This document shows, piece after piece, positions 28,740 to 64,000 of a stretch of DNA of 64,000 nucleotides (position 1 is its first letter; every line of letters starts with the position of its first letter). The notes under the pieces were generated by a model. The model was given only the letters and a program-made list of their open reading frames with translations, did not search any database and was not told where the DNA came from. Source of the DNA: Euptelea pleiosperma (taxonomy: Eukaryota > Streptophyta > Magnoliopsida > Ranunculales > Eupteleaceae). The stretch covers positions 22,321,190 through 22,385,189 of the forward strand of contig CM068553.1 in NCBI GenBank assembly GCA_035048495.1, in the 5' to 3' direction. The position numbers and the translations under genes are program-made.

Positions 28740-29226
28740 CGATCACGTGAAGAAGATGAAGAAGAGGAATAACGAGAAAGAAGAAAGGAGGAGGAAGATG
28801 GGGCCAAAAACGAGGGGAAGAGTAAAGGGGAAGGAGAGGAGAAGAAAAGAGGGGGACTAGGGTTCGAACGAACCCTTCTCCCTCCTCTTATAAAGCTCCC
28901 TATTTCCATTAATGGAAATAGGGTATTTTTTGAAAATAAAAAATATTTTTTTTTTTTTTTTTTTTTTTTTTTAAGTAAAAACCTACTTTTCTATGGGGAA
29001 TCTCCCCAATTAGTGGACCCCCCATTTTTTAATTAAAATTATTTTGAAATTTACGGGGTCCACTAACTGGTCGGACAGCGGGTCGATGATGATGGGCCCG
29101 GCTATTGGCCCACATGGACTGATGATGTCCATCGTCTCATAAGATGATGTGACAGACATTCTGATGGCGATCGGATGGATGGTGACTTGATTGGGACCCA
29201 GATTGGTAGATCGACGGATCTAGAGA

Positions 29227-29280
29227 GATCCAACGGTCCGATTGAAGATCCAACGGTCCGATGGAAGATCCAACGGTCAG
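29227..29280. repeat. 20-bp tandem motif in LTR U3
   Basis: Two full units and one partial unit starting GATCCAACGGTC. Same in related LTRs at 30308-30361 and 56211-56264. May be a U3 enhancer-type repeat (inference). Confidence 0.8.
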
Positions 29281-29426
29281 AAAGCTAAGGGAGATGAGAT
29301 AGAGCCGAAGGGTAGGAGTTCTGGGGTTAGGTCAGTAGATTCGAGGATCGAAAGATGAAGAGAGAGAGAGAATAAGAAGAGATGAGAGAAAAAGTATCAA
29401 AAAAATGGAAAAAAGCACTGGCGGAG

Positions 29427-29479
29427 GGTCTGCAACCCTGGTCTTCACTGTGACCATCCTCACGCTTCTCCAGTAGAGT
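29427..29479 (-). other. tRNA-like module in solo LTR 2
   Basis: A-box-like ACTCTACTGGAGAAGC and B-box-like GGTTGCAGACC, 42 nt apart in element sense. Confidence 0.45.
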
Positions 29480-30508
29480 CGACTATCATTCCTTGCTGAC
29501 TCATGTGGCTTTAAACGCTTTGGTCTGTCTCTTGGTCATTGGCTCTCCTGCTCTCTTCGTTCTTTGGGCCAGCTTTTTGGTCCTCTTATTCAGCCCATAT
29601 TTGGCCCATATCTTCTAGTCATGGCATGTGGGCTCTTTAAGCTTTGATAATGGGCTTTCCTGATCGATGTGGGCTTGCAAGTCTCGAGAATTGTCCCATC
29701 GGGGTTTCCTGCGACAGAAGAAGCGCGTAATGAGACTTTATCAGAACGACTCAATGTCTAGACTTCCGAAAATGTGTTTAATGCATGCAAATATACCATT
29801 TCGTCCAGAAAAGTGTGTTCTACGCAACTGAAGAGACTCTTACGTAGAAAAGTAGATAAATAGAGCCTTTTACGTAGGAGAGTGCGATAACGCTAAAAGG
29901 ATAATTGCTTAAAATAAGCACTTTTGAGCGAATATCAATTAGGGTTCGAACGAACCCTTCTCCTTCCTCTTATAAAGCTCCCTATTTCCTTTAATGGAAA
30001 TAGGGTATTTTTTAAATAAAAAAAATATTTTTTTTTTTTTTTTTTAAGTAAAATGCTACTTTTCTATGGGGAATCTCCCCAATTAGTGGACCCCCAGTTT
30101 TTTTGAAATTTAATTAAAATTCTTTGGAAATTCACGGGGTCCACTAATTGGTCGGACAGCGGGTCGATGATGATGGGCCCGGGTACTGGCCCACATGGAT
30201 TTGTGATGTCCATTGTCTCACAAGATGATGTGACAGACGGTCTGATGGCGATCGGATGGATGGTGACTTGATTGGGACCCAGATTGGTAGATCGATGGAT
30301 CTAGAGAGATCCAACGGTCCGATTGAAGATCCAACGGTCCGATGGAAGATCCAACGGTCAGAAAGCTAAGGGAGATGAGATAGAGCCGATGGGCAGGAGT
30401 TCTGGGGTTAGGTCAGTAGATTCGAGGACCGAGAGATGAAGAGAGAGAGAGAATAAGGAGAGATGAGAGAGAAAGTATTAGAAAATAGAGAGAAAAGCAC
30501 TGGCGGAG

Positions 30509-30561
30509 GGTCTGGAACCCTGGTCTTCACTGTGACCATCCTCACGCTTCTCCAGTAGAGT
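30509..30561 (-). other. tRNA-like module in solo LTR 1
   Basis: Same arrangement; B box GGTTCCAGACC; spacing 42 nt. Confidence 0.5.
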
Positions 30562-31024
30562 CGACTATCATTCTTTGCTGAATCATGTGGCTTTAAACGC
30601 TTTGGTCCGTCTCTTGGTCATTGGCTCTCCTGCTCTCTTCGTTCTTTGGGCCGGCTTTTTGGTCCTCTTATTCAGCCCATATTTGGCCCATATCTTCTAG
30701 TCATAGCATGTGGGCTCTTTAAGCTTTGATAATGGGCTTTCATGATCGATTTGGGCCCACAAGTCTCGAGAATCGTCCCATCGGGGTTTCCTACGACAGA
30801 AGAAGCGCGTAATGAGACTTTATTCGAATGGCTTAATATCTAGACTTCCGAAAATGTGTTTAATGCATGCAAATATACCATTTCGTCCAGAAAAGTGTGT
30901 TCTACGCAATAGAAGAGACTCTTACGTAGAAAAGTAGATAAATAGAGCCTTTTACGTGGGAGAATGCAATAACGCTAAAAGGATAATTGCTTAAAATAAG
31001 CACTTTTGAGCGAATATCAACACT

Positions 31025-33600: not shown

Positions 33601-33702
33601 CTTAGTGGCAATAGGAGTTGATTAAAACGAACAAAATATAATGGTCAAACTTAGTCATTGGGTAGACCCGAGTCAAACTCAATTATATTGACTAATGGGA
33701 TA

Positions 33703-34035
33703 GTCCAATTGATTGGACATGTATCCCCAATCGATTGGACATAGCCCAATCGATTGGAGACACTGTGTAATCGATTGGAGACTTTGAGGCAGAAACTTAT
33801 TTGAGCAAAATCGATTGGAGACTCTGTGAAATCAATTGGAGCCTTCGGGATAGAAATCAATCTGAGTACAATCGATTGGAGACGCTGTGTAATCGATTGG
33901 TGCCTTCGAGACAGACAGTTATATGACTCAAATCAATTGGAGAACCCTGTGCAATCGATTGGTGCCTTCGGAACAGAAAACTTATTGAGTCCAATCGATT
34001 GGACCAAGTGTACAATCGATTGGACCTTGAATAGA
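33703..34035. repeat. CCAATCGATTGG-type palindrome array, left LTR of D
   Basis: About 12 units of AATCGATTGG, some with AATTGATTGG or AATCAATTGG, in a loose repeat of roughly 55-60 bp with two motifs per period. The full motif is a perfect 12-bp palindrome with central CG. It ends about 75 bp before the TATA box. Confidence 0.9.
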
Positions 34036-34108
34036 ATTGGTCTTTTTCAGATCCAAAATTCATGGTTCCATTATCCCACATTTCACACGACTCAGGGTCT
34101 TGGAATTC

Positions 34109-34116
34109 TATAAATA
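34109..34116 (+). promoter_or_regulatory. TATA box, left LTR of D
   Basis: TATAAATA followed by a pyrimidine-rich stretch; counterparts at 41194-41201 and, degenerate, at 62047-62055. Confidence 0.7.
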
Positions 34117-34963
34117 TAACCCTTCTATGCCTTCTCTAAACACACACAGAGACACATAGTGAATCAATCTTCAAGAGAGAGAGAAGCAAAGGCTTTATTT
34201 ATTAGAGTGTCCCTTCGAAGAGCAAGAAGCTTGTTTTTCATTCACATCTTGTGAGCTTGTTCTCTTCTTGATCAAAGCCAAGTGCTTGATCCTTTCCTCA
34301 GCTTAGGTTTTCCATTTCTATATTCAACCTAGTAGCCTGAGTGTACCAGTGTGACTCAACACCATTTGAGCAACTTAAGGTTCAAGGTGTACTGAATCCT
34401 TCACCTTCTGCAAAGGCGAGAGTGTTGAGAATTAAGATCAGAGGAGCCGGTCGACGGTAGGTTTGGGGTGTACTAAACTGAACAAGCGGATAAGGCTTCT
34501 TTGCTGGAAGGCCGCGTGTGGATTCGTGGCGTTGATTTAGAGGATGTGGTCGCATCGGCAGTAGGCCTTGGCTAAGGTTGGAAGCTGTATTTGCAACGGT
34601 GCTGCGTACATAACCTTTGTTTCATTTAACTTTTCAGTTAGTGATACTTTCCGTCTGGACGTGGTCCCATGGTTTTTTCCTTGGCTAAGGTCTCCACGTA
34701 AAAATCTCTTGTCTACTGCGATTGTTTGTTTGTATTCCTCAATCTATCTTGATTAGATCAAACGACAAAAAGACAATATACCACGGAGGTATATTTGATT
34801 TGAGTCGGTTGTGATAATCTTTTTATCAAACAACTAAGGCATGCGATTTTATTCCCTTACCATCGTCCAGTAAAACTGTGTAGGTATAATTAATTTTAAA
34901 TACCTAATCAACCCCCACTTCTAGGTATATTGAGTTAAAGAGAACGGACCGGTGAAATTTCAA

Positions 34964-34976
34964 TTAGTATTAGAGC
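34964..34976 (+). other. Primer binding site of D (mutated)
   Basis: TTAGTATTAGAGC, against TTGGTATCAGAGT at the second copy (42047-42060). Both derive from the initiator-Met tRNA complement TGGTATCAGAGC usual for copia elements. Confidence 0.8.
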
Positions 34977-35052
34977 GGGTTTTTCTAATTAAGGTTTAAT
35001 CACATGAATTTAGATTCCTGAGAAACTAGTCCATTTTCATTAATTTGTCAAA

Positions 35053-36996
35053 ATGCAAAGAAAATGTGGAAATATATCCAGACCTCCATTGTTTGATGGG
35101 AAAGACTATGCCTATTGGAAGGCTAAGATGAGGGCTTTTCTAAAGTCCATTGATGAACGAGTCTGGATGTCTGTAGTGGATGGTTGGTCACCACCCACAA
35201 TGGAAGTAGGAGATAAAATCATTCTTAAACTGAAAAATGACTGGACTAAAGATGACATAGATTGTTGTTGTCTTAATAGCAAAGGGATAAATGCTATTTT
35301 TAATGCTATTGATAAGAATGAGTTTAGAAGAATCTCTACTTGTTCCTTAGCTAAAGAAGCATGGGACATACTTAGAGTCACACACGAGGGGACATCAGCC
35401 GTTAAGATTTTCAAACTTCAAATGCTGACGTCTAAGTTTGAATCCATGAGAATGGAGGAGAATGATACCTTCACTGCGTTTTATGCCAAACTTAGTGATA
35501 TCGTGAACTCTGCACACAACTTGGGTGAGGTCATCCCTGAATCAAAAGTTGTTCAAAAAATTTTGAGATCCTTACCTGATAGATTTCAGGCTAAGGTCAC
35601 TGCAATTGAAGAGAGCAAAGATGTTGACTCTCTTAAAGTCGATGAGCTAGTTGGGTCTCTACAAACTTATGAGATGAATTAAAGACAGCCAAAGAAATTA
35701 AAAGGAATTTTCCTTAAGGTTTCTGAAGCTCAAGATTCTGAGTCAGATGTTGACTCTGAAGTAGAAATGGCACTATTCGTGAAAAAATTCAAAAAGTTCT
35801 TTCGTTCTAAAAATGATAGGTTCAAGAACATAAACAGTTTGATAAAACTGTGGAACATGCCAGACCTCATGAGAGAGGTAGCAGAAGTGATAGGAACCCT
35901 AGGGAAAGTCGCTCAAACGATCCCCAATGTTTCCAATGTAAGGGTTTTGGTCACTTTGCTAATGTGGGCCCAAACAAAGAAGAATACAAGGGTAAGGCAA
36001 AAGCATTCAATGCCACATGGGATGAAGAATCAGAAGATCATTCTGATAATTTAGATAGTAATGAAAAGACTGATAAGTATACATCTTTTGTTGCTCATTT
36101 CAATAGTCCCTATGGATCTCATGGAGAGTCCAAGAAAAGTGATGATGAGTGTTCGGAAGACTCTTACAATGGGGACTCGGATAACTCGGCAGTTGGCATG
36201 AAAGAACTGTACGAGGAATTGATTAAATTCATTAAGGCTAACAAAGTTTCATCTGACAAGGTTAAATGTCTTGAATCTAAAAATGCTGCCTTAGTAATTG
36301 ACACTGAAAAATTAAAAGTGTTGATTACTGAATTAGAGCAAGAGAATGAGTCTCTGCTAAAGCGGAACAAGTCACTGGAATGTGAATTCCAAACTTGCAT
36401 GACACGTAAGGAATCCCTAGAAAATAAGGTTCTCAAATCAAAGAGGGATGTGTCAGGATTCTCATCCAACTCTGTAAAGCTTGATGAGATTCTTCGTGTG
36501 AGAAAAGCTATGGGGACAAACAGGGTTTGGGTTACAAAAGCAATCAAGAAAAAGGGTCTTCATCCAAGATAATTTTTGTTAAAGCCCAAGCTATTCCCAC
36601 TCAGATCAATGACCCAATCAAAATGGTCAAAAGTAGTAGTCAGTGCAAGTACTGCAAAAACATGGGTCAAGTGATTAGAGACTGTCACAAGTTGAGAAGA
36701 AGACATAAAAAATGGTGAATACCACTCAGAACGTGAAAAGTCTAAGAATTCCTATGAAGACATGTTATAAGATAAATTATTTGGATGTGCTATCTAGGAA
36801 GATGAAAGACCTACTGGAAAGGTCTAGAGAATTAATCAAGGAGATTGAGTCCCTTGAAAAATTCAAACAACCTCAGAGTTACGTAACTCAAAAGAGGAAA
36901 GATCCTAAGAGAATTGATCTATTTACCAAACTCACATCTGTGTGGGTTCAGAAAGATTCTCTAAAGGATAAATGTTCATCAATGTCCTATTTCTGA
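35053..36996 (+). pseudogene. gag: SIRE-like gag of element D
   Basis: Starts MQRKCGNISRPPLFDGKDY. Residues 1-209 form the copia gag domain (YWKAKMRAFLKSIDERVW; KEAWDILRVTHEGTSAVK) and end at TAA 35680-35682. Similarity goes on through frameshifts near 35830 and 36530: CCHC-like CFQCKGFGHFANVG with the last Cys lost, an acidic region, a coiled coil (about 36200-36460), a second knuckle CKYCKNMGQVIRDC with His replaced by Gln, then VWVQKDSLKDK, which in relatives directly precedes protease. Normally the capsid protein; here not functional. Confidence 0.85.
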
Positions 36997-38100
36997 GCAA
37001 TGTGCTCTCCATCCCCTCTTGTTCTCTATTCTTATTTTTTTGAGGGATATTTTTTTTTTGATTTTGCTTCGTTTTGAAGAATAAAAATTGATAATATTTC
37101 AGAAAATCAAAAGATAAAGTGTTTAGAAGAATGTTAAAATTATTATTTGATTATACGATTTTGATGAGCAGTATTTTCTGAGATATTCTAAGAAACATTG
37201 TGTATTATATCTTTTAATTATTATGATTGGTCAATTTTTACTAGTGTGCATTAGAAGATTATTGAAACAATATATCTCACATTCACATGCACACTGAGGA
37301 TATATGTGGGAATGGATTTGATAGAGGTGTGAAATCTTGAATTATATGGAATTGGGAATAAACCTCTACTGGTTATAACTTCAAATTAGTAGTGTTCTTG
37401 CCTTCAGTTGATTTTGAAATTGCACTATAGTCGACTGTTGGCTTCCTGATGAGAGTTATTATCTTAGGAAACAGCTATCTCTATAAAAGTTAGAGTGAAT
37501 GCCATCTGTATGGCCCTGTTTGAAATTAAAATCTGATTCTCATTGCTGTAGAAAAGGGCTACCTACATGGAGAGTGAAAGCTACCTATATTCAAAGTGAA
37601 TAAAAAGGGTGTAAAAGATAGCCAATTTGCTAAAAAAATTCTTATCCATCAGCAAATACCCATATACATGAGCGTATGTGAGATCTTTTAATAACTCTAA
37701 TGAGGATTTTATGATCGGATACAGGATACCTCCAGAGTCTGATACTTATGAGAAATTATTACTGAAATCTTATCCGGTACCACAGATGGACTCAGATCAC
37801 TTACACGTGATGATATTATTGTTGATATTTGAATCTATGATTACTAGTGATTTGTGACTTGCGCTAATGTCTAAAAGAATTAATATCTTTTAAAGCAAAA
37901 GAGTGATCTAACGTGTTAGTTAATTCTCTTCGATAAGAATCAGTGTGTAGTGCTTATCAAGATTGACTTCATGGAGTGAATTTTTTTTGACGTTTTATCT
38001 TTTCTTGAGCAGTTTAAAAATGATTTTTGACTTGAAAAGAATTACTCAGGGGTCTTAGAAAATGAACCTATTAGTTTAAAATTAAAATTTTTTTTTTCTT
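36997..38100 (+). other. AT-rich filler where pol is expected in element D
   Basis: About 1.1 kb, no frame over 60 codons, no protease, integrase, RT or RNase H motif on either strand. In autonomous relatives this interval holds about 3-4 kb of pol. Confidence 0.7.
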
Positions 38101-38111
38101 TCCCGGACCAG

Positions 38112-38228
38112 TCCAATCGATTGGACTTTACAGACTAATCGATTGGATATCTCCAATCGATTGGAGAGTATAGCTTAATCGATTGGATAGGCTCCAATCG
38201 ATTGGCCACTTAGTCCAATCGATTGGAC
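38112..38228. repeat. Internal CCAATCGATTGG array before the accessory gene of D
   Basis: Six AATCGATTGG units within 117 bp, ending 17 bp before a TATA-like box. Confidence 0.9.
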
Positions 38229-38244
38229 AATGCGACGTTAGGTT

Positions 38245-38252
38245 TTATAAAA
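38245..38252 (+). promoter_or_regulatory. TATA-like box of the accessory gene, element D
   Basis: TTATAAAA, about 215 bp before the ATG at 38466. The same arrangement is at 62358-62365 in element E and 57915-57924 (minus) in G, suggesting a separate transcript. Confidence 0.55.
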
Positions 38253-38465
38253 CCCAAAATGGGTCATTTTCAACCCCAATTGATCCAATCGCCTCTCAGA
38301 TTTCTCCCAATCGATCGCAGGTGCCCGATCTACTGTTCACATAAGGTTTTGTGGAGCGATTCTCTCGATTTTCTTGTTTTCTACTTCACCATCTTCATTG
38401 TGTTTTTAGAGAGTTTTTGAGCAAAAATGGAGATTTTTTGGTATTTTCTTCCTTTCTTGGTGCTC

Positions 38466-39950
38466 ATGGCGACTAATCCTCGTCGTAAAAGAGCTATTGT
38501 GGTCTCTGAAGAGGAAAGTGCTGATGAAGAACCCCTGGTTCAACGGACTTAATCTCAAGTCAAACGGGGTGGTCAACTCAGTGGGTCAGGGCACTCAGAG
38601 TGGGGTGAATCATCTAGAGGACCTAGGAGAGCTTGGGGTCGTGCCTGTCATACCGATATTCCTTCGGTGAGTGTTCCTATCTCTCCGTTCATTTTCGATT
38701 CTGCTAGAGATCGCTTTGAGCATTTCTCTGGTCGTAAATTCACTACTGAGAGAGTAGTTGAGTTTAGCACTATTTTGGGTACTATAGTTCATTCTTTGTT
38801 CGTATCTCGCGAGTGGGTTCCTATCACTCGTTTGACCATTCCATTTTACCCTATTTTGGTTAAACTTTTTTATGCCAACATGCACGCCATTCAGTGTGAT
38901 GACCCGAGTGAGCTATCCTTCCAAACTTTTGTCTCTGGGGCTTACTTGACTATTACACCTGATCCGATCTTTGCCTTGTTAGACATACCTCATCCGTCTA
39001 CCTCATATGAGTACATTCCTAGGACTCGTGAGATGACGACTTCTAGGGTCACCTTGACTGAGACTCTTACATGGTAGATATTTGATTGGAGTACATTTAT
39101 TCCTCTTACATCCCTTCTTCCTGAGTATCATTTGTTGCACCTCATCTGTGGGTACAACATTGATCCACCTGACCATAGGGCACAGGTGAACATTGATCAT
39201 CTTCAGCTTCTTTACCATCTTGGCACTGGGTTTGTCATTGACCTTCCGAGGTTCATTTTTCGAGCTATGGTTAGAGCAGGTAGCCAGTTGGCTAACCATC
39301 CGTGTCTCCCTTTCCATCTACTTGACAGCTCTATCCTACTTCATCTGGATGTGCCTATTCAAGCTACTAAGGAGGTGTGCTCTCCCATGGAGCCTATTGG
39401 GCCTTCGACTATTAGGAAGAGCATGTCTTAGATTCGGAGAGTGACAGATGTACCTCCACACTTTGATGATATTTTTGATGAGGACTTGGGGGATGATACT
39501 GAGCAGGGGGGTCAGCAGCCAGATACTGAGATGCATCCTCTAGAGTCATAGCCATCCTTTTTCCAGCTTCCTGAGATGCCTGCCCCTTACTCATTCGAGT
39601 CTCTCCATGATCAGATGGTGGGATTCGACCAGCGTCTCACAGCGCATGAGGAGCGGATGGCACAGAGCTTTCGCCGTTTAGAGGAGGGATAGGAGAGGAT
39701 GTTGAGCTCCATGTATGATATGCAGCGTTACATGGAGTAGCAGTTCACCATTATGGGATTTGGACAGCATCCACCAGCGCATGGCCCTGATCAATATGAT
39801 GGTGCTGGACCATCTACATAGACTCTTGGAGAGAGACATCTTGAGAGTTATCGAGTGTTTTCACTTTCATTTTTATTATACACCGATAAACTCAGATTAT
39901 GTATGCTTATACTCTGCTTGTGTTATAGTGTGTTACAGGATATAAACTAG
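38466..39950 (+). pseudogene. Accessory (env-position) gene of element D, plant transposon-protein type
   Basis: Begins MATNPRRKRAIVVSEEES, basic then acidic. The core (38667-39430) has RFEHFSGRKFTTERVVEF, VSREWVPITRL, YPILVKLFYANM and SELSFQTFVSG, which resembles the 'putative plant transposon protein' domain often seen beside retroelements (recalled, not searched). An acidic/Pro-rich tail and a coiled-coil-like FDQRLTAHEERMAQ follow. I see no signal peptide or membrane segment, so I do not call it an envelope. In-frame stops: TAA 38550; TAG 39075, 39429, 39549, 39690, 39738 and about 39819. Element E has the same gene. Confidence 0.75.
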
Positions 39951-40404
39951 TTATGTATTTAATTATGGATGTATATATTGCACTTGTTTCTCATGATAAT
40001 ATTCATTGCATGCTTATATTTTTGTACCTTTGTCAAATCTGTGACAAAAAAGGGGAGAGAAAATCATAGCGGTAAAAATAAGTTGATGCGTGAGATAGGG
40101 GGAGAGAAATTTAGGGGGTGAAATTTTTTTTTGTCATTTTTTCCAATTTCTCTACTTGTGATGTGCATAATTAACTCACTGCATTTTATATGATTTATTG
40201 ATTGCCGATGATATTACATGGTATGTATTGTTAGTAGAATGTGCAGGGAACAGATCAAAAGCCATTACTTTATATCTGTTCAATTATCTCCAAGAGAGTG
40301 TGAGATAGTGAGTGAATCATGTAAGAGGGTGGGATTGTATTTTATATTTTTTACCTTCTAGATGATTAAATATTTTTTATCACGGAATTGCCAAAGGGGG
40401 AGAT
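39951..40404 (+). other. 3' region and polypurine tracts of element D
   Basis: Contains an upstream purine tract (40045-40063) and the terminal one, CAAAGGGGGAGAT (40392-40404), touching the LTR. SIRE-type elements commonly have several such tracts. Confidence 0.75.
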
Positions 40405-42045
40405 TGTAAGGAATATTTTCATATTTAATTTGGCAAAGATTCTGTTTGACATAAAAAATATTCTTATAACTATTCCTACGAGCACAAGTGTAGTGTGAAG
40501 ATGTCGTGGTACGCATACTTCGCCAACTATGTGAAGACTAAAAAATAGAATCAGCAAGAATCAGATGGTTGATGACATGTGTCATCTGAGTAACTGCCAA
40601 TTTGTCAGTTAACGATCATGTACGCTCGATTAGGAAGGTATGTGACTTAGTGGCCATAGGAGTTGATTAAAATGAATAAAATATAATGGTCAGATTTAGT
40701 CATTGGGCAGACCCGAGTCAAAGTCAATTATATTGACTAATAGGATAGTCCAATCGATTGGACATGTATCTCCAATCGATTGGACATAGCCCAATCGATT
40801 GGAAACACTGTGTAATCGATTGGAGACTTCGAGGTAGAAACTTATTTGAGCACAATCGATTGGAGACTCTGTGAATCGATTGGAGCCTTCGGGACAGAAA
40901 TCAATCTGAGCACAATCAATTGGAGACTCTGTGTAATCTATTGGTGCCTTCGGGATAGAAAGTTATATTAGTCAAATCGATTGGAGAACCCTGTGAAATC
41001 GATTGGTGCCTTCAGAACAGAAAACTTATTCAGTCCAATCGATTGGGCACTTATCCCCAATCGATTGGACATGGCCCAATCTATTGGACTAAGTGTACAA
41101 TCGATTGGACCTTGAACAGAATTGGTCTTTCTCAGATCCAAAATTCATGGTTCCATTATCCCACGTTCCATACAACTCAGGGTCTTAGAATTCTATAAAT
41201 ACAACCCTTCTATGCCTTCTTTAAACACACACAGAGACACAGAGTGAATCAATCTTCAAGAGAGAGAGAAGCAAAGGCTTTATTTATTAGAGTGTTCATT
41301 TGAAGAGCAAGAAGCTTGTTTTCCATTCACATCTTGTGAGCTTGTTCTCTTCTTGATCAAAGCCAAGTGCTTGATCCTTTTCTCAGTTTAGGTTTTCCAC
41401 TTCTATATTCAACCTAGTAGCCTGAGTGTACCAGTGTGATTCAATACCATTTGAGTAACTTAGGGTTCAGGGTGTACTGAATCCTTCACCTTCTGCAAAG
41501 GCGGGAGTGTTGAGAATTAAGATCGGAGGAGCCGATCGACGGTAGGTTTGGTGTGTACTAAACTGAACAAGCGGATAAGGCTACTTAGCTGGAAGACGCA
41601 CGTGGATTTGTGGCTATGATTCAGAGGATGTGGACGCATTGGTAGTAGGCCTTGGCTAAGGTTGGAAGCTATATTTACAACGGTGCTGCGTAGGTAACCT
41701 TTGTTTCGTTTAACTTTTCAGTTAGTGATACTTTCCGTCTGGACGTGGTCTCGTAGTTTTTTCCTTGGCTAAGGTTTTCACGTAAACATCTCTTGTCTTG
41801 TGCGATTGTTTGTTTGTATTCCGCAATCCATCTTGATTAGATCAAACGACAAAAAGACAATATACCACGGAGGTATATTTGATTTGAGTCGGTTGTGATA
41901 ATCTTTTTATCAAACAACTAAGACATGAGATTTTATTCCCTTACCATCGTTCAGTAAAACTGTGTAGGTATAATTAATTTTAAATACCTAATCAACCCCC
42001 CTTCTAGGTATATTGAGTTAAAGAGAATGGACCGGTGAAATTTCA
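40405..42045 (+). repeat. Full-length middle LTR of element D (1641 bp)
   Basis: TGTAAGGAAT to GAAATTTCA. Palindrome array 40748-41118 with about 14 units, two of them AATCTATTGG; TATA box 41194-41201. It acts as 3' LTR of the left unit and 5' LTR of the right unit. Confidence 0.92.
40748..41118. repeat. CCAATCGATTGG-type palindrome array, middle LTR of D
   Basis: About 14 motif copies, mostly AATCGATTGG; same phase and spacing as the left LTR, plus two extra units near 41037-41090. Confidence 0.9.
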
Positions 42046-42046
42046 A

Positions 42047-42060
42047 TTGGTATCAGAGTG
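42047..42060 (+). other. Second primer binding site of D
   Basis: TTGGTATCAGAGTG, close to the initiator-Met consensus and better kept than the first. Confidence 0.82.
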
Positions 42061-42135
42061 GGTATTTCTAATTAAGGTTTAATCACCTGAATTTAGATTC
42101 CTGAGAAACCAGTCCATTTTCATTAATTTGTCAAA

Positions 42136-42970
42136 ATGCAAAGAGAAGGTGAAAATACATCCAGACCTCCATTGTTTGATGGGAAAGACTATGCCTATTG
42201 GAAGGCTAAGATGAGGGCTTTTCTAAAGTTCATTGATGAATGAGTCTAGATGTCTGTAGTGGATGGTTGGTCACCACCCACAATGGAAGTAGGAGATAAA
42301 ATCATTCTTAAACCAAAAAATGATTGGACTAAAGATGACTTAGATTATTATTGTTTTAATAGCAAAGGGCTAAATGCTATTTTTAATGCTGTTGATAAGA
42401 ATGAGTTTAGAAGAATCTCTACTTGTTCCCTAGCTAAAGAAGCATGGGACATACTTAGAGTCACACATGAGGGAACGTCAGCCGTTAAGATTTACAAACT
42501 TCAAATACTGACGTCTAAGTTCGAATCCATGAGAATGGAGGAGAATGATACCTTCACTGAGTTTTATGCCAAACTTAGTAATATCGTGAACTCTGCACAC
42601 AACTTGGGTGAGGTCATCCCTGAATCAAAAGTTGTTCAAAAAATTTTGAAATCCTTACCTAATAGATTTCAGGCTAAGGTCACTGCGATTGAAGAGAGCA
42701 AAGATGTTGACTCTCTTAAAGTTGATGAGCTAGTTGGGTCTCTACAAACTTATGAGATGAATTTGAGATAGCCAAAGAAATCAAAAGGAATTGCCCTTAA
42801 GGTTTTTGAAGCTCAAGATTCTGAGTCAGATGTTGACTCTGAAGTAGAAATGGCACTATTCGTGAAAAAATTCAAAAGGTTCTTTCGTTCTAAAAATGAC
42901 ATGTTCAAGAACAATAAACAGTTTGATAAAACTGTGGAACATGCCAGACCTCATGAGAGAGGTAGCAGAC
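42136..42970 (+). pseudogene. gag: Second, truncated gag copy of element D
   Basis: Same gag as 35053 onward, with TGA and TAG stops at 42240-42248 and TAG at about 42769. The middle is open (42250-42771). It keeps the reading frame that the first copy loses near 35830, and is cut at the knuckle-proximal basic region, where it joins LTR sequence at 42971. Confidence 0.85.
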
Positions 42971-43272
42971 ATGGTCTCGTGGTTTTTTCCTTGGCTAAGG
43001 TTTCCATGTAAAAATCTCTTGTCTTGTACGATTGTTTGTTTGTATTCTGTAATCTATCTTAATTAGATCAAACGACAAAAAGACAATAGACCACGGAGGT
43101 ATATTTGATTTGAGTCGGTTGTGATAATCTTTTTATCAAACAACTAAGGCATGCGATTTTATTTTCTTACCATCGTCCAGTAAATCTGTGTAGGTATAAT
43201 TAATTTTAAATATCTAATCAACCCCCCCTTCTAGGTATATTGAGTTAAAAAGAATGGACCGATAAAATTTCA
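42971..43272 (+). repeat. Third, 5'-truncated LTR of element D
   Basis: Last 302 bp of the LTR (from about 41746 of the full copy), ending AAAATTTCA. The right edge of the D insertion. Confidence 0.85.
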
Positions 43273-55669: not shown

Positions 55670-55884
55670 GTAAAAAAAATGAAGAAGATGAAGAAGACGA
55701 GAAGGAAGAAGAGGAGAAGAAGGAGGGGGAAGAAGGGGAAAACGTGGGGGGCAAATTTTGGGGAAAGGAGAGGAGGAGAGGGATTAGGAGATTAGGGTTT
55801 CGAACCCTCTCTTCTCCCCTTTTAAAGCTTCCCTATTTCCTTTAATGGAAATAGGGAATTTTTGAAAATAAAAAAATAAGAAAA

Positions 55885-55892
<8 letters not shown>

Positions 55893-55952
<60 letters not shown>
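55893..55952. repeat. (AT)n microsatellite
   Basis: About 30 AT units next to an A-rich run, inside solo LTR 5. Confidence 0.93.
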
Positions 55953-55955
<3 letters not shown>

Positions 55956-56411
55956 TAAGTAAAATGCTACTTTTCTTTGGGGAATGTCCCCATTTAGTGG
56001 ACCCCCCATTTTTTAATTAAAATTATTTTGAAATTCACGGGGTCCACTAACTGGTCGGACAGCGGGTCGATGATGATGGGCCCGGCTATTGGCCCACATG
56101 GACTGATGATGTCCATCGTCTCACAAGATGATGTGACAGACATTCTGATGGCGATCGGATGGATGGTGACTTGATTGGGACCCAGATTGGTAGATCGACG
56201 GATCTAGAGAGATCCAACGGTCCGATTGAAGATCCAACGGTCCGATGGAAGATCCAACGGTCAGAAAGCTAAGGGAGATGAGATAGAGCCGAAGGGTAGG
56301 AGTTCTGGGGTTAGGTCAATAGATTCGAGGATCGAGAGATGAAGAGAGAGAGAGAATAAGAAGAGATGAGAGAGAAAGTATCAAAAAAAATGGAGAAAAG
56401 TATTGGCAGAG

Positions 56412-56464
56412 GGTCTGGAACCCTGGTCTTCACTGTGACCATCCTCACGCTTCTCCAGTAGAGT
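56412..56464 (-). other. tRNA-like module in solo LTR 5
   Basis: A-box-like segment and GGTTCCAGACC, 42 nt apart in element sense. Confidence 0.5.
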
Positions 56465-56927
56465 AGACTATCATTCCTTGCTGACTCATGTGGCTTTAAA
56501 CGCTTTGGTCCGTCTCTTGGTCATTGGCTCTCCTGCTCTCTTCGTTCTTTGGGCCGGCTTTTTGGTCCTCTTATTCAGCCCATATTTGGCCCATATCTTC
56601 TAGTCATAGCATGTGGGCTCTTTAAGCTTTGATAATGGGCTTTCATGATCGATTTGGGCCCACAAGTCTTGAGAATCGTCCCATCGGGGTTTCCTGCGAC
56701 AGAAGAAGCGCGTAATGAGACTCTATCAGAATGACTACATGTCTAGACTTCCGAAAATGCGTTTAATGCATGCAAATATACCATTTCGTCCAGAAAAGTG
56801 TGTTCTACGCAACACAAGAGACTCTTACGTAGAAAAGTAGGTAAATAGAGTATTTTACGTAGGAGAATGCAATAACGCTAAAAGGATAATTGCTTAAAAT
56901 AAGCACTTTTGAGCGAATATCAATCCA

Positions 56928-57329: not shown

Positions 57330-57743
57330 TAAACGAACCAAATATAGTCGTTTGAAGGGCCAAAGTGCGCCTAAACTCATAAAAAAGATTGAGTCAAAAC
57401 GAGATTCGAATAGAGTGATTTGGAACCTAACTCTTCTGACCTTAAAATAAAAAAATGGACCTTCTGGATCATGATTGTTCAGGTTGCAATAAAATATTCT
57501 GACTAACTCAGGATATGCAACACCAGAATTGGAAAGAGGTTTAGACTAACCTACCGAATTCAGAAGATTGGGGATTCTAGTCATGGTCACTTCCTTTTTG
57601 ATTACCCCACGCTCCACAACAACGGCTCTTTTAATATAGTTCTTCAAAAAGCTAACCCTAGCCATGGGATTGATGAAAAGATTAAGAGGATAGGGATCTT
57701 TAGAATATGATTCACCTCTTGCTCTTTTCCTTTGTGGAGTCAT
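57330..57743 (-). pseudogene. Accessory gene of element G, plant transposon-protein type
   Basis: ATG at 57741-57743: MTPQRKRARGESYSKDPY, then FLKNYIKRAVVVERGV. A TAG at 57546-57548 interrupts. The same frame continues with AYPELVRIFYCNLNNHDPEG and VRFQITLFESRF to a TAA near 57330. The basic start and the LVR.FY.NL motif match the accessory proteins of D and E (LVKLFYANM). Confidence 0.65.
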
Positions 57744-57914
57744 TAAAACAAAATAAAGAAATTTCACCAAAAATTTAGGCAATGGTGAGACTAGAAATCT
57801 CTAGAAAGAGATTAGATTTGAGGGCTAGAGGTTTTCTCAAATGGGAAGGAGAGAATACAAATGAAATTTCTAGGGTTCCAAAAGGTTTCAGATGATCCAA
57901 AATCGATTTGGGAC

Positions 57915-57924
57915 AATTTATAAC
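57915..57924 (-). promoter_or_regulatory. TATA-like box of the G accessory gene
   Basis: TTATAAATTG, about 170 bp before the ATG and about 65 bp after the palindrome array. Confidence 0.5.
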
Positions 57925-57984
57925 CGAGGGCAACCGACTGGGCAAGGGTCGACTCGCCTGCGAATCTAATATTAGGTTTGGGTG

Positions 57985-58222
57985 TGAGGTGCGGTCGACC
58001 GGTCATAATGGTCAATCGACCGGGCATGTTTGGTCGACCGGACCTTTTGTTCCGTCGGCCCGACCCCGCAAACATAAAAATAGAAACCCAAAAAATATAA
58101 TTCGGTCGACCGGACCTTTTGTTCGGTCGACCTGACTTCGCAAACTCCATTTTCAAAAAACCCAATTGTTTTGACGGTTTATTCGGTCGGCCAGAAAATT
58201 TCATAGGTTGACCGACTTCGTA
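57985..58222. repeat. CCGGTCGACCGG-type palindrome array before the G accessory gene
   Basis: About eight units: three GGTCGACCGG and five variants (AATCGACCGG, GGTCGACCTG, GGTCGGCCAG and others), in the position held by CCAATCGATTGG in D and E. Many units are followed by CCTTTTGTTCGG. The 150-codon minus frame across it repeats SGRPN because of this array and is not a protein. Confidence 0.85.
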
Positions 58223-58264
58223 GATTACAGACCAGAAACCCAAAACAACAAAACAAATTATCAC

Positions 58265-58682
58265 TCACCAAATTTTTACACAAAAAGCTAACTAATCATT
58301 ATTTGAATGATTAGACTATTAGACTAACTGAAATACTGAAGATAGGATATTCAATATGAACTCAAATATTTAAGTCAATACCAACAAAAATTAATCAATG
58401 GGACAAACTCCGATAGATTTCCTCAGATAATTATTTCTGAGTGAATCTAAAGGTTTAGTCAAAATATCAGCAAGTTGAATTTCTATGTTCACATATTCTA
58501 ATGAAATTATTCTATTCTTCAACCAATTCTCGAATAAAGTGATGTCTAATATCTATGTGCTTGGTTCTAGAGTGCTGTACAGGATTTTTAGAAATATAAA
58601 TTGCACTCGTATTATCACAGAATAAATTCATAGATCCTTGATTAATTCCATAATCCGATAACATTTGCTTCATTCAAATTAA
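58265..58682 (-). other. Spacer between RNase H and palindrome array of G
   Basis: AT-rich. The part near 58430-58680 continues RNase H C-terminal coding sequence in broken frames (for instance the region of the TAACAACTGTCAGTGG match). No other gene. Confidence 0.5.
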
Positions 58683-59858
58683 CTAGGCATAACAACTGTC
58701 AGTGGCAATATATTCTGCTTCAGCAATAGACAAAGATATAGCATTCTGTTTTTTGCTGTGCCAAGCTACCAAATAATTTCCAATATAGAAACACCCACCA
58801 CTGGTGCTTTTATGATCATCAGCATTTCCTGCCCAATCGGCATCCAAATAGCCAACAATTTCATTGTTAGTCTCAAGAGGATACCAGAGACCGTATTCAA
58901 TGGTACCACTAACATATTTAATGATTCTTTTAACAGTCGAGAGATGAGATTCTTTTGGGTCAGATTGATACTTAGCACAAGCTCCTACACTAAAGGCAAT
59001 ATGGGGTCTGCTAGTTGTGAGATAGAGAAGACTACCAATCATGCTTATGTACAGAATCTAATCAATTGATTTTCCACTCAAATCCTTGGTGAGTTTAATG
59101 CTAGTGTTCATTGGAGTGTGTGAAGATTTAGATGATTTTAGGCCAAAATTTTAAGCAATTCTTTAGAATATTTAGATTGAGAAAAAATATATTTTCTAAT
59201 TGTTTAACTTGAAGCCCTAGAAAGAAGTTCAGTTCACCTTCCATGCTCATCTCAAATTCAAATTTCATAGCTTGAGCAAATTCTAAAGCATGCATTTCAG
59301 AAATTGAGCCAAAGACAATATCATCAACATATATATGGGATATTAGAACACCATTATCTCTTTTCTTAATAAACATTATTTTATCAGCAGTTCCTCTTGT
59401 GAATCCATTTTCCAATAGAAATTGAGTTAATCTTACCAAGCTCTTGTTGCTTGTTTCAACTCATATAAGGCTTTCTTAAGCCTATAAACATGATTACTTT
59501 TATGAGGGTCTTCAAAACCCTTAGGTTGTTCTACATAGATTTCTTCTTCTAGAATCTCATTTAGAAAAACACTCTTAACATCCATTTGATAGAGTTTAAA
59601 TTTTAAGACATGGGCTAATGCTAAGAGAATCCTAATAGATTCTAGTCTAGCCACTGGGGTAAAAGTCTGATCAAAATCAATCCCTTTAACTTGTGAATAC
59701 CCATGAGCCACTAATCTAGCTTTGTTTCTAGTTATTACTCCGTTCTCATCAAGTTTATTCTTATATATCCACTTAGTTCCTATCACATTTTTATCCAAGG
59801 GTCTAGGGGTTAGAAACCAAACATCATTTCTCTTAAATTGATTTAACTCCTCTTGCAT
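58683..59858 (-). pseudogene. pol: Copia reverse transcriptase and RNase H of element G
   Basis: Three frames joined by frameshifts. 59858-59433: RT start MQEELNQFKRNDVWFLTPRP, GTKWIYKNKLDENG, KARLVAHGYSQVKGIDFDQT, YQMDVKSVFLNEILEEEIYV (catalytic Asp in QMDV). 59439-59128: IYVDDIVFGSIS (YVDD), LNFFLGLQVKQ. 59042-58683: MIGSLLYLTTSRPHIAF, YLDADWAGNADDHKSTSG (RNase H Asp), AEAEYIATDSCYA. Motif content is complete, but the frames are broken and so inactive. Confidence 0.88.
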
Positions 59859-60033
59859 AGCATTTATCCAATGTTTATCTAAAAGAGCTTTTTTAATGTC
59901 TTTTGGTTCAATTTTAGGGTCTAGGGGTTAGAAACTAAACATCATTTCTCTTAAATTGATTTAACTTCTTTTGCATAGCATTTATCTAATGTTCATCTAA
60001 AAGAACTTTTTTAATGTGTCTTGGTTCAATTTT
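59798..60033. repeat. 118-bp tandem duplication in the RT N-terminus of G
   Basis: Units 59798-59915 and 59916-60033 share most bases (starting AGGGTCTAGGGG on the plus strand). The copies have diverged, so the duplication is not recent. Confidence 0.85.
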
Positions 60034-60183
60034 AGAGATAAAGAATAAATGACTGGATATATTTTGCAATTGACTTCTTGTACGCACACCACTATCCTTG
60101 TTTCCAATAAATCTAAATTAGGATGATCTTTAATGTATTTCCATTCTCTGGGTTGTGAACACTTGTTTCACCTTTTTCAATAT

Positions 60184-61060
60184 TTATAGATTCTTCATCT
60201 CATCTAAATTATCACCAATTTCTAGAGATTCATCATACTTGTGATTATCAAATTCTCTACCATTGTCACTTCTAATCCTGAGAATAGACAAACTTTTCTC
60301 ATTTTGAACTTTTTTACAAATTTTCATGAGTTCATCAAAAGCTTCAGATTTTTCTCTAAGAAAAGTTATACAAGTAAATCTGGAGAAATCATTAACAACA
60401 GTTAAGAAATATCTTTTTCCACCATGACTTTCTATTCTATTAAGTCCAACAAAGTCCATATGTAACAATTCAAGAATTCTAGAGGTATCAATATTTTTTA
60501 TCTTTTTGTGTGAGTTTCTAACTTGTTTTCCTTTTAGGCAAGACCCACAAATAGTTTGATCATTTTTATTGAGTTTTAGAATTCCTTTTATTAATTCTTT
60601 CCTACTGATCTTGGCTAAGTCTTTAAAATTTATGTATCCTAGACGTTGGTGCCATAGTTCTGTTTCATTAGTTAGTACCATGTTGCACTTAATCGAACCA
60701 CCAGTCTCAATGACATAACAATTATCAGTATTTCTATTTTCTTGAATTATTACTTTGTTGGAAGTTTTGTCTATGATTTCACATTTCTCTTTCGAGAACT
60801 TACATATATGATATTTATCACAAATCTGACTAATACTTAGGAGGTTATGTTTTAGACCATCTACACACAAAACATTCTCAATCTTAGGTATACTTGGACC
60901 TTGAATAGTCCCTCTACTAATTATTTTAGCACTACTGCCATCACCAAATGTAACCTCACCATCATGACATTCATCAAAGAAACAAAAATGAGATCTTTCT
61001 CTAGTCATGTGTCTGGAGCATCCACTATCCAAATACCACTTAGAAGTTTCATGTGCAATT
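60184..61060 (-). pseudogene. pol: Copia protease start and integrase of element G, C-terminally deleted
   Basis: Frame reads ETSKWYLDSGCSRHMTRERS (protease DSG, codon upstream of 61032), LLSISQICDKYHICKFSKEK, then integrase zinc site WHQRLGYIN (second His replaced by Tyr) with CGSCLKGK, and core HMDFVG (first Asp) and RSDNGREF (second Asp). The sequence then passes directly into linker (ESLEIGDNLDEMKNL). The catalytic Glu and the integrase C-terminus are deleted. Confidence 0.85.
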
Positions 61061-61340
61061 AGAGCAGTATGAATAACGAAACATTTTTCAATATATTTCT
61101 TATTCTATCTTTTTATGGGAGTATTTTCATTCTGGTTGATCTGAGAGTTATTAAGGTTTTCTTTTCTATTTTTAGCTTTAGCATTTAAATCTACTAATTT
61201 TTTAAACAATTCCTTTTATTTGTTTAGTTTCCTGATTTCCTCAAAAATTTTTAGATCATTCTCTTATTTTTATTTGGAAATTCTAATTTCTTTTTAAGAA
61301 CATTACAATTATATTTTTTATGTCTAGAATGTCTACAATA
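61061..61340 (-). pseudogene. gag: gag C-terminus remnant of element G
   Basis: In broken frames: a knuckle relic YCRHSRHKKYNC near 61310-61335 and Lys/Asn-rich sequence up to protease. Cut by E at 61341. Confidence 0.5.
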
Positions 61341-61341
61341 T

Positions 61342-62281
61342 TTTAAGGAATATTTTCATATACAATTTGGCAAAGATTTTGTTTGACATAAAAACATTCT
61401 TGTAACCATTCCTACGAGCACTAGTGTAGTGTGGAGATGTCGTGGTACGCATACTTCGCCTACTACTTGAAGACTAAAAGACAGAGATAGTAAGAATCAG
61501 ATAGTTGACGACATGAGTCATCTGAGTAACTGCCCATTCGTCAGTTAAAGATCGTGTACGCTCAATTAAGAAGGTAAATGACTTAGTGGCCATAGGAATT
61601 ATTTAAAATGAATAAAATATAATGGTCAAACCTAGTCATTGGACAGACCCCAGTCTGAGTCAAAGATATTGACTATTGGGAGAGTACAATCGATTAGACA
61701 CCTATACCCAATCGATTGGACATAGCCCAATCGATTGGAGACTCTGTGTAATCGATTGGAAGCTATGAGGCAAAAACTTATTTCAGCCCGATCGATTGGA
61801 GACTCTATGAAATCGATTAGAGTCTTCGGGATAGAAACTTTTTTGAGTCCAATCGATTAGAGACCTTTGTGTAATCGATTGGAGCTTACGGATCAGGAAA
61901 CTTATTGAAGCCAATATATTAGACACATATACCCAATCGATTGGACCCAGAGTACAATCGATTGGACCTTGCTCGAACTCAGTCTTTCTCAGATTCGAAT
62001 TTTGTAGTTCCATTATCCCACATCTCACACGACTCAAGGTCACGAATTTTATAATACAACCCTTTTATACCTTCTCTAAACACACACAGAGACACAGAGT
62101 TTATTAGAGTACCTATTTGAAGAGCAATAAGCTTATTTTCCATTTACATCTTGTGAGCTTGTTCTTCTTCTTGATCAAAGCCAAGTGCTTGATCTATCCC
62201 TCAACTTAGGTCTTCCACTCATATATTCGACCTAGTAGCCTGCGTGTACCAGTGTGACTCAACACCTTTTGAGCAACCTAG
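61342..62281 (+). repeat. LTR of element E, 3'-truncated
   Basis: Aligns with 40405-41460 of D. Palindrome array 61686-61970 with about 11 units, several decayed to AATCGATTAG; TATA-like TTTATAATA at 62047-62055. A small deletion removes the stretch after the AGAGACACAGAG motif. Confidence 0.85.
61686..61970. repeat. CCAATCGATTGG-type palindrome array, LTR of E
   Basis: About 11 units; exact ones and variants AATCGATTAG, GATCGATTGG, AATATATTAG. Confidence 0.88.
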
Positions 62282-62287: not shown

Positions 62288-62342
62288 CCAATTGATTGGC
62301 TTTGCTCCAATCGATTGGCCACTTAGCCCAATCGATTGGACA
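62288..62342. repeat. Internal palindrome array before the accessory gene of E
   Basis: Three units left (AATTGATTGG, AATCGATTGG twice), 15 bp before TTATAAAA (62358-62365). Confidence 0.88.
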
Positions 62343-62365: not shown

Positions 62366-62578
62366 CCCAAAAATGGGTCATTTTCAACCCCAATCGATCC
62401 AATCGCCTCCCAGATTTCTCTCAATCGATCGCAGGTGCCCGATCTACTATTTCCATACTGTTTTGTGAAGTGATTCTCTCGATTTCTCCAATTTTCTACT
62501 TCATCTTCTTCGTTGGATTTTGGAGAGTTTTGGGTAAAAATGGAGTTGTTTTAGTATTTTCTTCTATTTTTGGTTCTT

Positions 62579-64000
62579 ATGGTGACAAATCCTCGTTGTA
62601 GAAGAGCGATTGTAGTCTCAAAAGAAGAGAGTGCCGATGATGAACCTCTTGCACAACGGACCCAATCTCGCGTAAAACGAGGTGGTCGACTTAGTGGTTC
62701 GCGGCACTCCGAGCGGGGTGAATCATCTAGAGGCTTTAGGAGAGCTCATTCCTGGGGTCGTTCCGGTCATACTTAGATTCCTTCAGTGAGTGCTCCCATT
62801 TTTTCATTTATTTCTGATTCAGCTAGACATCGTTTTGAGCATTTCTCTGGTCGGAAATTCACTACTGAGAGAGTAGTTGAATTTAGCAATATTTTGGGTA
62901 TTATGGTTCATTCTATGTTCGTATCTCGTGAGTGGATTCCTGCTACTTGGTTGAACATCCCATTTTATCCTGTCTTGGTTAAACTCTTTTATGCCAACAT
63001 GCATTGCATTCAGTGTGATGACCCGAGTGAGCTATCCTTTCAGACTTATGTCTCTGGGGCTCACCTGACTATTACACCTAATTTGATTTCTACTTTGTTG
63101 GACATACCTCATTCCCCTACTTCATTTGAGTACCTTCCCAGGACTCGTAAGATGATGACTGCTAGAGCTACTTTGACCGAGACTCTCACAGGTTAGTTAT
63201 TTAATTGGAGTACTTTTCTTTCACTTACCTCTCCTCCCTGAGTATCGGTTGTTGCACCTCATCTGTGGGTACAACATTGATCCACCTGGGCATGGGGCAC
63301 AGGTGAACATTGATCATCTCCAGCTTCTATATCATCTTGGTACTGGGTTTGTTATTGACCTTCCGAGGTTTATGTTTAGAGCCATGGTTAGAGTGGGTAG
63401 CCAGTTGGCTAACCATCTGTGTCTTCCATTTCCTCTACTGGTGAGCTCATTATACTTCACTTGGATGTTCCGATCCTAGATTCCGAGGAGGTTTGCTCTC
63501 CTGTGGGGCCCATTGGACCCTCCACTATCAGGAAGAGCATGTCTCAGGTTCGGAAAGTGACAGATGTTCCTCCACACTTTGATGATATTTTTAATGAGGA
63601 CTTGGGAGATGATACTGAGCCAGGCGTCCAGCCAACAGATACTGAGATGCATTCTCCAGAGCCACATCCATCCTTTGTCCAGCCTCTAGAGATGCCTGCA
63701 CCTTACTCATTTGAGTCTCTTCATCATCAGATAGTGAGATTCGACCAACGGCTTACGTCTCATGAGGAACGGACGGCTCAGGATTTTTGCCGTCTAGAGG
63801 AGCGTTAGGATGCTGGTTTCAACCGGATGACTGGCACTCTTACGGATATGCAACAATATATGGAGTATTAGTTTACCATGATGGGCTTTGGACAACATCC
63901 ACTAGTTCATGGTCCAAATCAGCAGGATGGTATTGGCCCATCGACCAAGTCTCCGAGAGAGAGATTTCTTAAGAGTTATCTAGTATTTGTTTTTATTTTG
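62579..64000 (+). pseudogene. Accessory gene of element E, partial at window end
   Basis: ATG 62579-62581: MVTNPRCRRAIVVSKEESAD, then RGGRLSGSRHSERGES, TAG at 62774-62776, then the transposon-protein core (62786-63196) ending at a TAG shared in position with D (39075). A 2-bp deletion near 63225 shifts the frame. The tail resumes at 63419-63808 (VTDVPPHFDDIFNEDLGDD; RFDQRLTSHEERTAQ) and ends with a TAG again shared with D (39690). Similarity continues to about 63985. Not functional here. Confidence 0.78.

What the first reader, a model, noticed from the sequence alone, without database searches (positions are those of the whole stretch)
33703..38252. Same palindrome array placed before two promoters of a SIRE-like element
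In element D a 12-bp perfect palindrome, CCAATCGATTGG, occurs about 12-14 times in each LTR shortly before the LTR TATA box. It occurs six more times, in the interior, directly before the TATA-like box of the accessory gene. Element E repeats the layout (11 and 3 units). A motif array shared by both promoters of one element suggests one factor controls both. It could be a host factor (the unit is two CCAAT boxes face to face, so NF-Y is a candidate) or the element's own accessory protein, comparable to VANC proteins of VANDAL transposons, which bind short repeated motifs in their own element and lift silencing. The second reading is speculation, but testable.
Basis: partly seen in the sequence, partly recalled or inferred. 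Interest (0 to 1): 0.85.

Follow-up and report, generated by a model that had tools for sequence, protein, structure and literature searches.

The report
Twin palindrome arrays in plant Sirevirus
A plant jumping element carries the same array of short palindromes in front of its two likely promoters; this layout is already described for its genus, and what is new here is an unusual palindrome, a clear internal TATA box, and a family that has lost its polymerase but kept the extra gene.

Summary
D and E are Sireviruses (Ty1/copia). D's two LTRs (12 and 14 units), E's LTR part (11) and the stretches before the envelope-like gene (6 and 3) carry arrays with core AATCGATTGG, about 20.4 bp apart; 17 of 46 units are the perfect 12-mer. 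The 12-mer occurs 15,482 times in the host genome, 9 for the backwards control. All 30 envelope-gene promoters read (D included; best 30 of 40 scored) carry 2-6 units, 26 of 30 with TATAAA; 14 of 20 reached an LTR, and all 14 carry arrays.

The layout is known: Bousios et al. 2010 described palindromic motifs in Sirevirus LTRs and before ENV; Tnd-1's motif is nearly this one. New: the non-CGG motif at both places, a conserved TATA box after the internal array, a pol-less gag+ENV family whose ENV frame shows purifying selection (median dN/dS 0.35), and a second element in the window with the same layout but motif CGGTCGACCG, which differs from D's core only by transitions.

NF-Y is disfavoured (3 of 92 half-sites). 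A VANC-like role for the accessory protein is possible but weaker than an unidentified host factor.

The parts
33603..34962 (+). Element D first LTR, 5' end truncated, ends in CA
   Evidence: alignment with LTR2; 16-bp junction 14/16 to the Sirevirus PBS junction
33705..34023 (+). LTR1 motif array, 12 units, 20.4-bp period
34108..34116 (+). LTR1 TATA box CTATAAATA, 84 bp after the array
35053..36996 (+). gag remnant (PF14223 in its first piece), interrupted; no pol found between it and the linker
38113..38226 (+). interior array, 6 units, 20.3-20.4-bp period
38243..38252 (+). interior TATA-like box TTTTATAAAA, 16 bp after the array
   Evidence: TATAAA in 26 of 30 promoters read, D included
38427..39821 (+). 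envelope-like accessory gene (PF20167 domain; a C-terminal coiled-coil-like stretch by inspection only), broken in D by stops
40395..40406 (+). terminal polypurine tract plus attachment site AGGGGGAG/AT/TG; a further PPT octamer at 40097
40405..42045 (+). Element D second LTR
40750..41108 (+). LTR2 motif array, 14 units; TATA at 41193-41201
42044..42059 (+). PBS junction CAATTGGTATCAGAGT (15/16)
61345..62280 (+). Element E LTR part, joined directly to the ENV promoter
61686..61965 (+). E LTR array, 11 units by the loose scan (9 at up to 2 mismatches)
62288..62339 (+). E interior array, last 3 units; TATA 62356-62365
62540..64000 (+). E envelope-like gene, broken, runs off the window; one piece matches PF20167 at 26 bits (cut-off 45), another piece matches no family
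57992..58214 (-). Element F: array of 7 CGGTCGACCG-type units (up to 2 mismatches)
57916..57925 (-). Element F interior TATA-like box GGTTATAAAT
57741..57743 (-). Element F start codon of a presumed envelope-like gene; the 84-aa piece here matches no Pfam family, the assignment rests on 83% identity over 124 bp to L075, which precedes a PF20167 match
58683..61104 (-). Element F copia-type pol pieces (Pol_BBD, gag_pre-integrs, rve, RVT_2; the piece 58683-59057 matched no family)

Best explanation
The arrays are the Sirevirus repeated-motif (RM) boxes, acting as enhancer-like operator arrays. A DNA-binding factor, most likely host-encoded, palindrome-recognising and therefore probably dimeric, binds many units set about two helical turns apart, and so turns on two promoters together: the LTR promoter (genomic RNA, gag) and an internal TATA promoter that makes a separate mRNA for the envelope-like PF20167 protein. 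Shown here: both arrays, their occurrence across the family members read, unit conservation, spacing, the TATA boxes, and selection on the protein. Inferred: binding, activation, the internal transcript, and the host origin of the factor.
For: 30 of 30 ENV promoters read (D included) carry 2-6 units at closely similar positions; of 20 read further, 14 reach an LTR and 14 of 14 carry an array (2-15 units) ending within a few bases of the LTR TATA block. Loci were chosen by the leader, not by the array, yet the unit core varies least: mean pairwise difference 0.038 against 0.149 in spacers, 0.094 in the leader, 0.067 in the TATA box. Nearly equal period in both arrays. One ENV-less element has LTR arrays and no interior cluster, as Bousios et al. 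reported for four elements. A second element in the window repeats the layout with another motif and its own TATA box. The ENV frame shows purifying selection, so it was presumably expressed although pol is missing.
Against: No transcript, binding or methylation data. Bousios et al. could name no factor and no conclusive internal promoter. Period and copy-number changes could come from tandem duplication alone. A multiple alignment of arrays with different unit numbers tends to stack units on units, which favours low unit variability. TATA-like boxes are common in AT-rich DNA.
Confidence: 0.5

Rival explanations
1. The envelope-like PF20167 protein itself binds the units at both promoters and activates them or lifts silencing, like VANC proteins of VANDAL transposons.
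For: A pol-less family keeps the gene under purifying selection; D-type and F-type families in one genome have different motifs, as VANC families do (passages of PMC5735166); arrays gain and lose units.
Against: One ENV-less, pol-less gag element keeps LTR arrays (it could still be served in trans); 4 of 13 published RM Sireviruses have no ENV; an ENV relative at 33% and 42% identity keeps the D motif. Structure prediction gave no usable fold (mean pLDDT 36).
Confidence: 0.15
2. The arrays work through chromatin rather than as an activator site: CpG-bearing palindromes that set methylation, small-RNA or nucleosome patterns over both promoters.
For: CpG observed/expected is 1.04-1.32 in 200-bp windows over the interior array; RM clusters border predicted CpG islands in the literature (passages); the period of 20.4 bp equals twice 10.2.
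Against: G+C is only 0.37-0.44 there; the D-type unit has fewer CG and CHG sites than the F type, which a methylation-recruiting role would not favour.
Confidence: 0.2
3. NF-Y binds the CCAAT half-sites.
For: Half-sites CCAAT and ATTGG are present in 22 and 42 of 46 units.
Against: RRCCAATSR fits 3 of 92 half-sites; the left CCAAT is often lost while AATCGATT is kept; the F-type motif has no CCAAT.
Confidence: 0.03
4. A by-product: a tandem-repeat expansion without function, copied from the LTR to the interior by template switching.
For: The three larger gaps inside the LTR arrays are 41, 61 and 19 bp, near multiples of the unit spacing.
Against: The unit core varies about four times less than spacers (with the alignment caveat above); a similar spacing pattern is seen in F, whose linker no longer aligns convincingly with D's.
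Confidence: 0.1

Closest known systems
Sirevirus repeated motif (RM) boxes, Bousios et al. 2010, PMC2829016 (abstract, section 9 and passages seen)
   Same: Palindromic repeats clustered in the upper half of the LTR before the TATA box and again just upstream of the ENV gene.
   Different: 12 of their 13 motifs have a CGG-CCG core; this one has AATCGATT. They found no conclusive internal promoter; here TATAAA follows the interior array in 26 of 30 copies read.
Tnd-1 (RM ACAATCGATTGT, same table)
   Same: Same CAATCGATTG core.
   Different: Tnd-1 has no ENV and no interior copies.
Vitis Sirevirus (RM CGGTCGACCG, same table)
   Same: Consensus identical to the motif of element F of this window and of L075.
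   Different: From D's core it differs at four positions, all transitions.
Pol-less gag+env Athila families (PMC2410132, passages seen)
   Same: Lack pol, keep gag and env frames under purifying selection.
   Different: Athila is Ty3/gypsy; no operator arrays appear in the passages seen.
PF20167 extra frame of a sunflower Athila element (PMC11728184, passages seen)
   Same: Extra frame with partial similarity to PF20167.
   Different: Ty3/gypsy; its sequence was not compared here.
VANC/VANDAL anti-silencing (PMC5735166, PMC10398659, passages seen)
   Same: Family-specific short motifs in tandem repeats in non-coding parts of an element that also codes for the protein.
   Different: Protein binding was shown there; here there are no binding data, no VANC sequence was compared, and arrays exist without the gene.

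Membership tests
Sirevirus (Ty1/copia) | PPT octamer AGGGGGAG followed by AT/TG at the LTR | tested here: met
   12/12 at 40395
Sirevirus (Ty1/copia) | Several PPT copies after ENV | tested here: met
   2 octamers, 40097 and 40395; fewer than the published average of four
Sirevirus (Ty1/copia) | PBS junction CA/ATTGG/TATCAGAGC | tested here: met
   15/16 at 42044, 14/16 at 34961
Sirevirus (Ty1/copia) | Inverted repeat around the terminal PPT | tested here: not met
   none of 10 bp or more at 80% identity in a simple ungapped scan; three published members lack it too
Sirevirus (Ty1/copia) | copia-type gag | tested here: met
   PF14223, E 7.4e-27
Sirevirus (Ty1/copia) | RT/INT placed in the Sirevirus clade | not testable with these tools
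   no pol found in D and the relatives read through; F's pol pieces were not placed in a tree
RM boxes of Bousios 2010 | Palindromic, at least 8 copies, LTR cluster starting 200-400 bp into the LTR and extending 300-500 bp | tested here: met
   starts 345 bp in, spans 359 bp, 14 units
RM boxes of Bousios 2010 | Extra copies before ENV in ENV-containing members | tested here: met
   30 of 30 promoters read
RM boxes of Bousios 2010 | CGG-CCG core | tested here: not met
   AATCGATT core; Tnd-1 is the published exception
Sirevirus envelope-like gene | Position between the coding region and the 3' LTR, behind RM boxes | tested here: met
Sirevirus envelope-like gene | Sequence similarity to a named Sirevirus ENV-like protein | not tested
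   no named ENV-like sequence was at hand; the name here rests on position
PF20167 (Transposase_32) | Score over the curated cut-off | tested here: met
   D's gene 74.2 bits against 45 when the tool reads past a stop; pieces alone 29 and 37 bits
VANC-type anti-silencing | Element-encoded protein binds the repeated motif | not testable with these tools
   needs binding data
VANC-type anti-silencing | Homology to VANC | not tested
   no VANC sequence was compared
NF-Y site | RRCCAATSR | tested here: not met
   3 of 92 half-sites

The most novel reading that the evidence does not exclude
The envelope-like PF20167 protein is not an envelope but the arrays' own binding factor: a VANC-like regulator in a copia retrotransposon, kept by a pol-less family because it keeps that family expressed. 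Motif and protein then shifted together between the CGGTCGACCG and CAATCGATTG classes, a change of four symmetric transitions that removes two of three CG sites from each unit.
Probability: 0.12. Interest if true: 0.88.

Novelty: new variant of a known kind. Interest (0 to 1): 0.5.

Why it matters
How the Sirevirus envelope-like gene is expressed, and what it does, is described as unsettled in the papers seen. A TATA box after an operator array, kept in 26 of 30 copies read of a family with 549 first-look candidates, gives a concrete internal promoter to test. A pol-less family that kept gag and this gene under selection argues that the protein helps the element even without its own replication enzymes. 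Two motif classes with one layout in one genome allow a direct test of whether a host factor or the element's own protein reads the motif.

Tried and rejected
NF-Y: rejected on consensus fit. Structure of the envelope-like protein: one AlphaFold2 job on 17 rows gave mean pLDDT 36 and pTM 0.27; not used, no fold search was run. Solved-structure search: 0 matches at E up to 1. Protein search with the 174-aa D piece: 31 candidates, 0 hits; with the 417-aa L053 frame: 1 hit among 2,202 candidates, a pineapple PF20167 protein at 25% identity. A gag piece had 2,509 hits, 120 listed, the named ones from eudicots; it was not used to place D in a tree. Symmetric intermediate CAGTCGACTG: 191 in the genome against 200 for the control, so no amplified intermediate class; this speaks against slow stepwise drift that left living intermediates. 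The other intermediate, CGATCGATCG, did not complete. F against D linkers: no convincing alignment, best E 0.005. F-family LTR arrays: not reached; L076 held no CGGTCGACCG cluster and instead an inverted D-type LTR piece. The 84-aa piece of F's presumed envelope-like gene matched no Pfam family. Searches used a start one base off or crashed; one search replaces them. Rows dropped: 4 of 25 ENV rows (L051, L054, L010, L011; under 900 aligned bases) before the 21-copy count, and 1 of 210 pairs before the median. Selection biases: the 30 ENV loci, D among them, are the best 30 of 40 scored out of 549 candidates; the 12 PF20167 upstream pieces are my picks of 150 scored out of 1,144; some of the 30 look like duplicates of each other (L023/L026, L038/L039, L022/L040 by their patterns).
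Full report
What is there. The 12-mer CCAATCGATTGG has 17 exact matches in the window, mean 0.00 in shuffles, and 44 at up to two mismatches against 2.98 expected. A looser scan gives 46 units in five arrays: 12 in the first LTR of D, 14 in the second, 6 before the accessory gene, 11 in E's LTR part and 3 before E's accessory gene. The palindrome is less perfect than the finding says: 17 of 46 units are perfect, the right half ATTGG is kept in 42 of 46 and the left half CCAAT in 22 of 46. Neighbouring units lie 18-22 bp or about 40 bp apart; the best period is 20.4 bp in D's LTRs, 20.5 in E and 20.3 in the interior array.

What the elements are. D's terminal PPT and attachment site match the Sirevirus twelvemer 12 of 12, the PBS junctions 15 of 16 and 14 of 16, and gag is copia-type (reference strings from passages of PMC2829016). 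The inverted repeat around the PPT was not found. D's second LTR is followed by a PBS and gag again, so D is LTR-interior-LTR-interior with a truncated left end. E is an LTR part joined near 62280 to the last three interior units and the accessory gene, so everything between is deleted. The accessory gene is a PF20167 member: D's copy scores 74.2 bits against a cut-off of 45 when the tool reads past a stop. I call it envelope-like from its position; no named ENV-like protein was compared. The literature says that the Sirevirus ENV-like gene may not be a true envelope gene (PMC3414828, passages), and PF20167 has been reported in an extra frame of a sunflower Athila element (PMC11728184, passages).

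Family-wide test. The host genome (613 Mb, unnamed) holds the 12-mer at 15,482 places and its backwards control at 9. The accessory-gene leader has 549 first-look candidates, 40 scored. I read the best 30, one of them D itself: 30 of 30 have 2-6 units upstream at closely similar positions; 26 of 30 have TATAAA and 28 of 30 have GACGTT between array and TATA. Among 20 copies read on over about 4.3 kb, 14 reach a recognisable LTR, and 14 of 14 of these LTRs have an array (2-15 units) ending within a few bases of the TATA block; 6 of 20 reach no LTR in the stretch read, one of which (L058) has its LTR, with 11 units, just beyond. These loci were picked by the leader, not by the array; the unit core varies least (0.038 mean pairwise difference, against 0.149 in spacers, 0.094 in the leader and 0.245 upstream), though alignment of repeat arrays tends to stack units. 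Between the LTRs of D (second) and E the ordering agrees: 8 of 110 core sites differ, 37 of 137 spacer sites and 91 of 656 sites outside the array, though there units were defined by similarity.

A pol-less family. Member L062 (with L042) is LTR, gag, linker, array, ENV, LTR with no pol, colinear with D; L010 has the same order at 76-87% identity by block. A protein-level search with F's pol pieces finds gag but no pol in L062, L010 and D. Among the 40 ENV and 40 LTR places listed, 4 same-strand pairs lie within 20 kb, D and L062 included, and all 4 are 4.17-4.24 kb apart, too short for pol. In 21 ENV copies pN/pS is 0.37 and median dN/dS 0.35 in the coding frame, against 0.53-0.82 in the five other frames. 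In gag (5 sequences) pN/pS is 0.26 against 1.03 and 1.17 in the other forward frames. So both proteins were probably under purifying selection in the lineage that spread. Pol-less gag+env families under selection are known in Athila (PMC2410132, passages). One full-text search matched 29 papers and listed 12; none of the 12 titles or abstract starts describes such a Sirevirus.

A second motif class in the same window. Element F on the minus strand has copia-type pol pieces, then 7 units of CGGTCGACCG at up to two mismatches, then GGTTATAAAT, then a start codon. F was not placed in a tree; I take it for a Sirevirus from its layout and motif. Its 84-aa piece after the array matches no Pfam family; it is 83% identical over 124 bp to L075, which elsewhere in the genome has what looks by inspection like a pol end, the same array, a TATA box and then a PF20167 gene. 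CGGTCGACCG occurs 1,067 times against 156 for its control and is the motif listed for a Vitis Sirevirus. F spacings are 21, 60, 21, 51, 21, 18, 21, 46, 19, counting units at up to three mismatches; D's interior spacings are 22, 18, 22, 19, 21. F-type and D-type cores differ at four positions, all transitions, with the TCGA centre kept; of 11 flanking positions compared, 6 have the same most frequent base and 5 differ or tie. The surrounding linkers do not align convincingly. I infer common descent of the arrays, with the D and Tnd-1 motifs derived by C-to-T change on both strands; direction is inferred from how widespread CGG-CCG is in the published table. The symmetric intermediate CAGTCGACTG is not enriched (191 against 200), which is against gradual drift with surviving intermediates. 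A D-type 16-mer has one CG per strand and no CHG; an F-type 16-mer has three CG and one or two CHG.

Of 12 PF20167 genes chosen by me from 150 scored, 8 have three or more D-type units upstream, 1 has two weak units, 1 has its array cut off by another sequence, 1 has no motif and unrelated upstream DNA, and 1 (L075) has the F type.

Mechanism. The simplest reading is an operator shared by two promoters. Who reads it is open. A host factor is favoured because arrays exist without ENV, in one element on C1 and in four published elements, and because an ENV relative at 33% and 42% identity in its two longer aligned stretches still follows two D-type units and a TATA box. The element's own protein remains possible, since motif class and gene family differ together between D and F, and the protein is under selection. 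NF-Y fits 3 of 92 half-sites.

What is known. Bousios et al. 2010 (PMC2829016; abstract, section 9 and passages seen) described palindromic motifs in LTRs and before ENV, suggested regulation, and could not conclusively identify the internal promoter or the factor. So the finding is a new variant of a known kind. A full-text search for three forms of this motif matched 36 papers and listed 20, of which by title only PMC2829016 concerns Sireviruses.

Noticed in passing
57741-61104 (-): Second copia-type element (F) with pol pieces, a CGGTCGACCG array, a TATA-like box and a presumed envelope-like gene start; E begins at about 61345, next to its coding pieces.
   Followed up: partly
40405-43122: D's second LTR is followed by PBS and gag again, an LTR-interior-LTR-interior arrangement suggesting recombination between copies.
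   Followed up: no
L023, L026, L069, L070: Four ENV promoters are cut at different points by the same foreign end sequence (ending in GAGCGAATATCAC), as if another repeat family inserted or joined there repeatedly.
   Followed up: no
38227-38242: GACGTT between array and TATA box is kept in 28 of 30 ENV promoters read; a possible further factor site.
   Followed up: partly
29028-30944 and 55810-56847: A long repeat of another family occurs twice in tandem near 29-31 kb and again near 56 kb.
   Followed up: no
38427-38466: Short hydrophobic stretch between two in-frame start codons of the envelope-like gene; a similar stretch precedes MAT in the pineapple relative P0121.
   Followed up: no
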